This document shows positions 20,899 to 21,753 of a DNA stretch of 38,031 nucleotides, in pieces; within the stretch, counting starts at the first letter, position 1, and every line of letters starts with the position of its first letter. Below the pieces are notes generated by a model. That model was given only the letters and a program-made list of their open reading frames with translations, ran no database searches and was not told the origin of the DNA. The translations under genes were made by a program, and so were the position numbers. Source of the stretch: Pseudomonadota bacterium (GTDB lineage: Bacteria; Pseudomonadota; Alphaproteobacteria; Rhodobacterales; Rhodobacteraceae). The DNA lies in the NCBI GenBank assembly GCA_018240425.1, contig JAFEFU010000022.1, positions 1 to 38,031 on the forward strand, read 5' to 3'.

Positions 20899-20970
20899 TC
20901 AGACCATCATTTCCTTGGTCGCCGTGAGCCTCAGCGCCGGGTGATCTCGCAGGTTCCGGTCGATGGCCCA
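20899..20970 (-). repeat. Second, partial copy of the prfC 3' end (attachment-site-like)
   Basis: These 72 bp match the last 24 codons of prfC (21682-21753) at 66 of 72 positions. Read in the prfC frame they encode WAIDRNLRDHPALRLTATKE then MMV and a stop, against WDIDRIVRDHPALRLTATKE then MMV in prfC. Of the six differences three are silent, so the copy evolved as coding sequence, probably in another genome. The longest identical run is 23 bp (20903-20925 = 21686-21708). Homology ends sharply at 20970. This is what a site-specific insertion at the 3' end of a gene leaves behind. Confidence 0.8.
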
Positions 20971-20995
20971 TAGCGGGAGAGAGGGCACACGAGGG

Positions 20996-21685
20996 TCACA
21001 GAATCAATAGGCTTGAATCGCAAAGCACGGCGACGTGCTTGAAGGCACATCTGGCAAGGCGAACGCGATCAGACATTTTGTCGAGGGCGCCGCTGCGCGC
21101 CAAATAGCCGCAATCGATCGGCAATGCAGAATTGTCATATAGCAGGAGGAACAGCTTGTCGGTTTTGGCGTAGTCCGCCGACTTTTCGATTTTCATTGCC
21201 ACGATCTTGCAGACGATCGCGGCAAGTTCCTTCTCGGGTTCGTAGCTCAGCCACGGGGATCCCGCACGCGAATTCAGCAAGTTTTGTGCAAGAACTTTAC
21301 GGCTAGGGTGAGCAGGAAAATCCTTGGTCTTTGGAGGGTGCCACACATCAAGGCCCAACTCTTGGGCAACCGAGCGAGCCTTTGCGACTACCTCGGGAAC
21401 CAATTCGGCAATTTCGATGCCGATGGTGCCCGAACCCGTGTCGAGCCAGATGTCTGGCCTGTCGCCCTGAGCGAGCCTGAACGGGGGGAGCGGTTTGTCC
21501 AGCCAATCATAGGCCTGCTCGGACAGCAGCGCCTGTTTGAGCGTCCATCGCTCCTTTTCCGCGCTGGTACGACCCCGTCTGTTCTCGCAGACCTGCCAAT
21601 TCGTGGCCGCAAGTTCTTGCTGGAACTCTTGCCAGTCCTGGCCACACAGCAGTGCCGCAAAGTCATCTGGTGGACCAAGCCTCAC
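20996..21685 (-). CDS. Orphan protein of unknown function, possible PD-(D/E)XK nuclease-like fold; inserted behind prfC
   Basis: This is a 229-residue protein from a GTG at 21685 that overlaps the prfC stop by 4 bp (GTGA). The codons for Lys-Glu near the prfC end supply an AAGGAA Shine-Dalgarno 8 bp upstream, so it appears translationally coupled to prfC. Longer frames start inside prfC in the wrong frame and were rejected. The segment RPDIWLDTGSGTIGIEIAEL (76-95), followed by EKELAAIVCKIVAMKIEKSA (151-170) and YAKTDKLFLLLYD (172-184), resembles predicted PD-(D/E)XK-like families with a PD ... GIExTE core and a following helix. I cannot name a family. G+C is about 53%. The gene lies between two copies of the prfC 3' end, so acquisition is likely. 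Confidence 0.68.
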   Translation of the reverse strand: MRLGPPDDFAALLCGQDWQEFQQELAATNWQVCENRRGRTSAEKERWTLKQALLSEQAYDWLDKPLPPFRLAQGDRPDIWLDTGSGTIGIEIAELVPEVVAKARSVAQELGLDVWHPPKTKDFPAHPSRKVLAQNLLNSRAGSPWLSYEPEKELAAIVCKIVAMKIEKSADYAKTDKLFLLLYDNSALPIDCGYLARSGALDKMSDRVRLARCAFKHVAVLCDSSLLIL

Positions 21686-21753
21686 ACCATCATTTCCTTG
21701 GTCGCCGTCAGCCTCAGCGCCGGGTGATCGCGCACGATCCGGTCGATGTCCCA
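21682..21753 (-). repeat. prfC: prfC 3'-terminal repeat, functional copy
   Basis: These are the last 24 codons of prfC including the stop, repeated with 92% identity at 20899-20970, 783 bp away in the same orientation. Together the two copies bracket the orphan gene as direct repeats. Confidence 0.8.

What the first reader, a model, noticed from the sequence alone, without database searches (positions are those of the whole stretch)
20899..21753. A single acquired gene bracketed by two copies of the prfC 3' end
The last 72 bp of prfC recur 783 bp downstream in the same orientation with 66/72 identity and mostly conservative coding changes. Between them lies one low-G+C gene and no recombinase. 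This looks like a minimal integrative cassette, or the remains of an island, that used the prfC 3' end as attachment site and restored the gene with its own copy. prfC is a known integration target for SXT/R391-type elements, but in those the site is at the 5' end.
Basis: partly seen in the sequence, partly recalled or inferred. Interest (0 to 1): 0.8.

Follow-up and report, generated by a model that had tools for sequence, protein, structure and literature searches.

The report
Inserted nuclease-like gene displaced prfC's tail
One extra gene, predicted to encode a DNA-cutting enzyme of an undescribed family, sits directly behind the housekeeping gene prfC; prfC keeps a complete end while a worn second copy of its last 72 bases lies beyond the extra gene, and recombination that was faithful at only one end, rather than a dedicated mobile element, is the likely cause.

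Summary
The repeat is real: 20898-20971 and 21681-21754, 74 nt, 92% identical, same strand, 783 bp apart. Between lies one gene (20996-21685, minus, 57% G+C against 67%) whose GTG start overlaps the prfC stop as GTGA. It encodes an undescribed family with a predicted PD-(D/E)XK-like fold. All 4 sampled congeners have the empty site. In another genus a 27%-identical member sits at exactly the same place with the same overlap. A displaced prfC tail lies close behind prfC in 5 of 376 genomes with a prfC hit: four with different inserts, one a tandem duplication. Repeat length varies (about 72-253 bp) and no tyrosine recombinase is close. A control gene, lepA, does the same in 7 of 361. So insertion and recurrence are confirmed, but a prfC-specific attachment site is not supported. 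Best reading: cargo physically linked to a gene end entered by homologous recombination on one side and illegitimate joining on the other, pushing the resident 3' end downstream. For G000 itself, insertion with target duplication remains open. Interest moderate.

The parts
21682..23289 (-). prfC, peptide chain release factor 3, complete, 535 aa
   Evidence: ORF; best matches in all 4 congeners at 92-93% identity. The name prfC follows the finding and the match to the family's translational GTPases; no Pfam scan was run on it.
21682..21754 (-). R copy: the functional last 72 coding bases region of prfC, in frame with its body
20996..21685 (-). inserted gene, 229 aa (P0004), GTG start overlapping the prfC stop as GTGA; undescribed family with PD-x(11)-GxExxE ... 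E ... K motif, predicted PD-(D/E)XK-like fold
   Evidence: no family at E <= 1 in Pfam, PHROGs, PADLOC, NCBIfam
20899..20971 (-). L copy: displaced prfC tail, not attached to a prfC body; 5 of 7 differences from R lie on this copy when polarised against congeners and 28 other genera
20115..20630 (-). native downstream neighbour (VPLPA-CTERM protein, label from the finding; the C-terminus reads PVPAGGLLLISALGAAAAARRRKA-like), 268 nt after the L copy
   Evidence: same neighbour 165-389 nt after prfC in 4 of 4 congeners
18288..19988 (-). native DEAD-box RNA helicase gene, next conserved neighbour
   Evidence: PF00270 and PF00271; present downstream of prfC in 4 of 4 congeners
23339..24352 (-). 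Hint_2-domain gene upstream of prfC
   Evidence: PF13403; found upstream of prfC in 2 of 4 congener stretches, G001 and G003

Best explanation
A foreign gene, predicted to encode a PD-(D/E)XK-like nuclease, lies inserted at the 3' end of prfC so that prfC keeps one complete, coding end and a second, displaced end lies beyond the gene; the likely route is one-sided recombination, in which incoming DNA carrying a prfC end plus the gene paired with prfC on one side and was joined illegitimately inside the resident prfC tail on the other. Shown: the empty site in congeners, the complete end next to the body, the displaced end between the insert and the native flank, the GTGA overlap, recurrence at prfC with other inserts, and the same thing at lepA. 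Inferred: that the new end arrived with the cargo (homology-facilitated illegitimate recombination, HFIR), that translational coupling to prfC supplies expression and explains why survivors sit exactly at the stop codon, and that the protein cuts DNA.
For: Empty site in 4 of 4 congeners; the flank after the L copy is the native one (VPLPA-CTERM gene 268 nt after L in G000, 165-389 nt after prfC in congeners). A divergent member (27%) sits behind prfC with the same GTGA overlap in G093, which has no detectable second tail: this is what a donor arrangement prfC-gene would look like; among the ORFs listed for 4 congeners of G093 none is this gene. Tails with other inserts in G146, G159, G386. DUF6869 genes lie just behind prfC in 4 of 53 loci (G269, G093, G386, G008; the 53 include loci picked for their tails), so prfC-cargo linkages recur. 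In G146 the two tails differ by 17.5 synonymous to 3.5 non-synonymous changes, which rejects an in-place duplication followed by decay of one copy (P = 1.3e-5): they are two coding alleles from different lineages. The left boundary of the repeat varies while the right one lies at the stop, as expected for illegitimate joins kept only if prfC stays whole. lepA shows the same in 7 of 361 genomes. The geometry equals the published model for Vibrio T6SS effector displacement, which invokes HFIR (PMC5361080, passages).
Against: For G000 there is no sign that R is foreign: its last 216 bp resemble congeners (0.80-0.86) as the rest of the gene does, and R and L are closer to each other (0.90) than either is to any sampled species; 5 of 7 differences are private to L, so at insertion the two were nearly the same allele, which fits target duplication or a conspecific donor as well. 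The synonymous test is uninformative for G000 (P = 0.41), G159 (0.13) and G386 (0.15) and is also significant for G389, a tandem duplication (4e-4). Repeat lengths of 69-253 bp are shorter than random joins along a 1.6-kb gene would give; instability of long repeats would have to explain that. No donor fragment or microhomology was shown.
Confidence: 0.42

Rival explanations
1. Insertion with long target duplication: the gene inserted into the prfC end of one cell and the target was duplicated in the act, as proposed for restriction-modification genes; L then decayed.
For: R and L were nearly identical at insertion. The gene is nuclease-like. A second family member, in Pseudomonas sp. B28(2017) (L107), also lies between 86-bp, 92% direct repeats made of one end (here the 5' end) of a small host gene. 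The published description is insertion with long and variable target duplications (PMC3031569 and PMC2749054, passages; the original paper of 2000 was not seen).
Against: The G146 tails evolved as separate coding ends. Other displaced tails carry cargo that is not nuclease-like (DUF6869, DUF3800). No methylase beside the gene.
Confidence: 0.25
2. Site-specific element: a remnant, or a cassette moved by an integrase encoded elsewhere, that used the prfC 3' end as attachment site.
For: Insertion at a gene 3' end with restoration of the gene is typical of tyrosine-integrase islands (established knowledge); G000 holds five PF00589 proteins on other contigs.
Against: No PF00589 protein on the contigs of the prfC tails of G000, G146, G159, G386; nearest 500 kb away in G389 and 67 kb from prfC in G075. 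No constant core length. lepA behaves alike. Serine recombinases were not searched for.
Confidence: 0.13
3. Homing: the protein cuts intact prfC ends and repair copies its gene with the R tail; L serves as right-hand homology arm.
For: Predicted nuclease; two divergent members at the same prfC site. Anatomy equals the fungal mitochondrial gene hybrids: gene body, in-phase inserted C-terminal, endonuclease ORF, displaced native C-terminal (PMC3630166, passages).
Against: R is too close to the resident tail to escape cutting (at most 2 of 72 ancestral differences). Members elsewhere sit at other genes or in an integron.
Confidence: 0.1
4. Plain tandem duplication of the prfC end, with later insertion or loss of the second flank.
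For: G389 shows exactly this, with two copies of a similar downstream ORF.
Against: In G000 the insert is not found twice and the native flank follows L, not R.
Confidence: 0.05

Closest known systems
Vibrio cholerae T6SS effector-immunity arrays (sequential displacement by HFIR; PMC5361080, passages seen)
   Same: Upstream homologous anchor, new module inserted, resident 3' end shifted downstream, no integrase
   Different: There the anchor gene is the toxin itself and selection is for immunity; here the anchor is a housekeeping gene and the cargo is unrelated to it
Fungal mitochondrial gene hybrids with mobile endonuclease ORFs (atp6, atp9, cox2, nad3; PMC3630166, passages seen)
   Same: Order gene body, in-phase C-terminal, nuclease-type ORF, displaced native C-terminal
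   Different: Mitochondrial; other nuclease; inserted C-terminal clearly foreign and mobility said to be demonstrated; in G000 R is not foreign-looking and no cutting is shown
Insertion with long target duplication of restriction-modification genes (PMC3031569, PMC2749054, passages seen)
   Same: Low-G+C nuclease-type gene between long direct repeats of the target
   Different: No methylase; same architecture here with non-nuclease cargo
SXT/R391 ICEs and tyrosine-integrase islands
   Same: prfC as site; gene restored
   Different: 5' end in SXT/R391 (recalled and as in the finding); here 3' end, one gene, no integrase
PD-(D/E)XK proteins of unknown function such as PA4535 (1y0k) and XisH (2inb, 2okf)
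   Different: No sequence match at E <= 5 except one unrelated designed binder; family not in Pfam, NCBIfam, PHROGs or PADLOC

Membership tests
Tyrosine-integrase island at prfC | integrase in or beside the element | tested here: not met
   none on the window's contig
Tyrosine-integrase island at prfC | constant attachment core at the repeat | tested here: not met
   repeat lengths differ between G000, G146, G159, G386, G389 (different elements could still have different cores)
SXT/R391 ICE | insertion in the prfC 5' end with conjugation genes | tested here: not met
   3' end, one gene
HFIR-type displacement | one end continuous by homology, displaced resident end downstream, cargo between | tested here: met
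HFIR-type displacement | new end comes from a donor allele | tested here: inconclusive
   one search shows no donor signature in G000; one search supports two alleles in G146
Insertion with long target duplication | long direct target repeats flank the insert | tested here: met
Insertion with long target duplication | both repeats derive from one resident allele | tested here: inconclusive
Mitochondrial-type gene hybrid (homing) | in-phase replacement end, nuclease-type ORF, displaced end | tested here: met
   nuclease only predicted
Mitochondrial-type gene hybrid (homing) | inserted end foreign relative to the displaced native end | tested here: not met
   in G000
Mitochondrial-type gene hybrid (homing) | endonuclease cuts the empty allele | not testable with these tools
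   needs purified protein
PD-(D/E)XK superfamily | PD ... (D/E)XK-type acidic motif on a beta sheet core | tested here: inconclusive
Integron gene cassette (for the G000 gene) | integron integrase and attC | not tested
   no PF00589 protein on the contig; attC was not scanned for in G000. A relative in Pseudomonas sp. MMS21 TM103 is next to an integron integrase (TIGR02249, E 8e-147) and between near-identical attC-like repeats

The most novel reading that the evidence does not exclude
The 3' ends of conserved genes such as prfC and lepA in Rhodobacteraceae-type genomes act as integrase-free capture sites: cargo genes arrive with a replacement gene end, each arrival pushes the previous end downstream, and the displaced ends mark the layers of an integron-like array built without an integrase; a nuclease cargo such as the prfC gene may promote its own capture by cutting the resident end.
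Probability: 0.25. Interest if true: 0.75.

Novelty: new variant of a known kind. Interest (0 to 1): 0.5.

Why it matters
If gene 3' ends are recurrent landing places without any recombinase, a share of single-gene acquisitions now called orphan insertions or island remnants has a simple common cause, readable from displaced gene ends. The tails are dated markers: the coding allele, the decayed allele and the order of layers can be used to measure how often one-sided recombination captures foreign genes in nature, a process known mainly from laboratory transformation. The nuclease-like family itself (13 further proteins, 28 further loci) is undescribed in four profile libraries.

Tried and rejected
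Rejected or weakened: (1) prfC as a special attachment site: the lepA control gave as many displaced tails. (2) A donor signature in the prfC 3' part of G000: none. (3) Extension of the L copy beyond 72 bp: only marginal (0.017-0.19 of cargo windows and 0.04-0.08 of shuffles reach the score, depending on length); not claimed. (4) A second tail in G093: none found at E <= 0.1 or by repeat search. (5) A frmA tail copy behind the G232 member: none found. (6) Contexts of the 28 loci: 27 were given to the script, L126 gave no ORF, L127 was left out; no tail duplication of the upstream gene was seen in the 26 shown, apart from the gene-head repeat of L107. (7) Sequence search of PDB: one unrelated weak hit. 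(8) G401 gave a 27-residue match to the protein (E 2e-4); not followed. (9) A remnant-like match in L064 (67% over 91 columns, not at the gene end) is taken as chance. G159's tail is not refound because that script looked only 3 kb downstream.

Of the second lepA hits in 11 of 361 genomes, 7 lie 65-584 nt behind the lepA stop; G147 is one gene split by unresolved bases, G218 a contig end, G076 another contig, G393 the same contig 1.37 Mb away. Of the second prfC hits in 6 of 376, 5 are close behind prfC and G075's lies on another contig. The two queries differ in length (72 and 52 aa). Names recalled, from no call: pilin-like ORF in G389, GIY-YIG, VUT, ArsR, OsmC, rsmI, frmA, SCOP class of 1y0k.

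Full report
Observation. The repeat is as described. I call the copy joined to prfC R (21682-21754) and the displaced copy L (20899-20971). The gene between is 229 aa; its GTG start shares the prfC stop codon (GTGA, 21682-21685), so expression would depend on prfC (inference). Its G+C is 0.57 and GC3 0.66, against 0.66 and 0.91 in prfC.

Empty site. Five genomes of the genus are held. The four congeners (prfC 92-93% identical in protein) carry one prfC end, then 165-389 nt, then the VPLPA-CTERM gene and the DEAD helicase gene, and no homologue of the inserted gene in the fetched stretch. In G000 the VPLPA-CTERM gene lies 268 nt after L and 1051 nt after R. The insert is therefore R-side gene plus one extra prfC end.

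Where members sit. In 394 genomes of the family, one search found G093 (27%; Histidinibacterium lentulum by protein P0005) and a 27-residue match in G401; a profile search of 292 genomes of the order added G232. G093's gene follows prfC with the same GTGA overlap and no second tail was found; the ORFs listed for four congeners of G093 do not include it. G232's follows another conserved gene (frmA-like by eye) two bases after the stop. Elsewhere contexts are mixed: an integron cassette beside an integron integrase in Pseudomonas sp. MMS21 TM103, a conjugative Shewanella plasmid next to an Abi-family and a superinfection-exclusion gene, a position behind an rsmI-like gene in three Stenotrophomonas, and, in Pseudomonas sp. 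B28(2017), a place between 86-bp direct repeats made of the 5' part of a small gene. The family is thus mobile in several ways and not tied to prfC.

Recurrence at prfC. With the last 72 residues as query, 376 of 394 family genomes match and 6 match more than once: G000, G075, G146, G159, G386, G389. Details and the fetched stretches: G146, second tail 1417 bp on, about 230-253 bp long, other cargo, part of which reads N; G159, 3268 bp, about 116 bp, two larger ORFs between; G386, 563 bp, about 87 bp, one DUF6869 gene (PF21746, E 2e-30) with GTGA overlap, contigs C391 and C284 overlapping at the copy; G389, 931 bp, a tandem duplication with a similar ORF behind each tail; G075, a tail on another contig. 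DUF6869 genes also follow prfC in G093, G269 and G008 (4 of 53 loci examined, a set that includes the loci picked for tails).

Are R and L two alleles? In G146 the changes are 17.5 synonymous to 3.5 non-synonymous over 222 bp; a duplication in place followed by decay of L is rejected (P = 1.3e-5). G389 also rejects it (4e-4) although it looks like a duplication; G159 (0.13), G386 (0.15) and G000 (0.41) do not. One search gives the same test with longer, partly non-homologous edges. In G000, 5 of 7 differences are private to L, one (the last sense codon, GTG in R, GTC in L and in 3 of 4 congeners) is where R departs and creates the GTG start, one is mixed. R shows no foreign affinity. So for G000 the allelic origin of R is not shown.

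Control. lepA, last 52 residues, same 394 genomes: 361 match, 11 more than once; 7 have a second tail 65-584 nt behind the lepA stop, 90-181 bp long. Some carry in-frame stops, and 1-2 kb of low-G+C DNA follows them (for example a DUF3800 gene in G129, PF12686). In G373, G259 and G302 short ORFs fill the space between lepA and the tail, so layers on both sides of a tail exist. No PF00589 protein lies within 40 kb of these; the nearest are about 51-52 kb away in G066 and G259. Displaced ends are therefore not special to prfC.

Mechanism. The structure, variable left boundary, boundary at the stop on the right, lack of a recombinase, and spread over genes and cargos fit one-sided recombination best: homologous pairing in the conserved gene, illegitimate join on the other side, survival only if the gene stays whole. 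The same model was drawn for V. cholerae effector modules (PMC5361080, passages), and HFIR is described for several bacteria (PMC3240628, start of abstract). Gene transfer agents, known in this bacterial family (established knowledge), would be a natural source of short fragments; this is inference and no call tested it. Insertion with target duplication is the main rival for G000, strengthened by L107. Homing has the nearest anatomical parallel in fungal mitochondria (PMC3630166, passages), but R would be cut. A site-specific island is disfavoured.

Literature limits. Searches of the held library were read as listings; passages were read in four papers. The prfC-related listing (22 papers, 20 listed) was not read further, so I make no claim that prfC 3' insertions are absent from print.

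Verdict. Observation confirmed; interpretation partly supported; new variant of a known kind; interest 0.5.

Noticed in passing
L154-L160 (lepA loci of G066, G310, G135, G373, G259, G129, G302): Displaced lepA tails 65-584 nt behind lepA in 7 of 361 genomes, several with in-frame stops, followed by 1-2 kb of low-G+C DNA; looks like layered captures behind lepA.
   Followed up: partly
L107:3554-3639 and 6108-6193: A relative of the inserted gene and a second gene lie between 86-bp, 92% direct repeats that are the 5' part of a small gene in Pseudomonas sp. B28(2017); the intact small gene is on one side, a headless-body-free copy on the other.
   Followed up: partly
L114:2544-4735: A relative is the first cassette beside an integron integrase, between near-identical attC-like repeats, in Pseudomonas sp. 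MMS21 TM103.
   Followed up: yes
L094:5065-5199 (G075): A prfC tail (45 aa, 56% identical) far from prfC, between ORFs that look like a transporter and an ArsR-type regulator; perhaps a moved displaced tail.
   Followed up: no
L058, L076, L091, L173: DUF6869 genes directly behind prfC in four genera, two of them with the GTGA overlap of a full-length ORF besides G093's nuclease-like gene.
   Followed up: partly
L089:3400-5000 (G389): Tandem duplication of the prfC end together with a similar downstream ORF on the opposite strand (pilin-like by eye).
   Followed up: no
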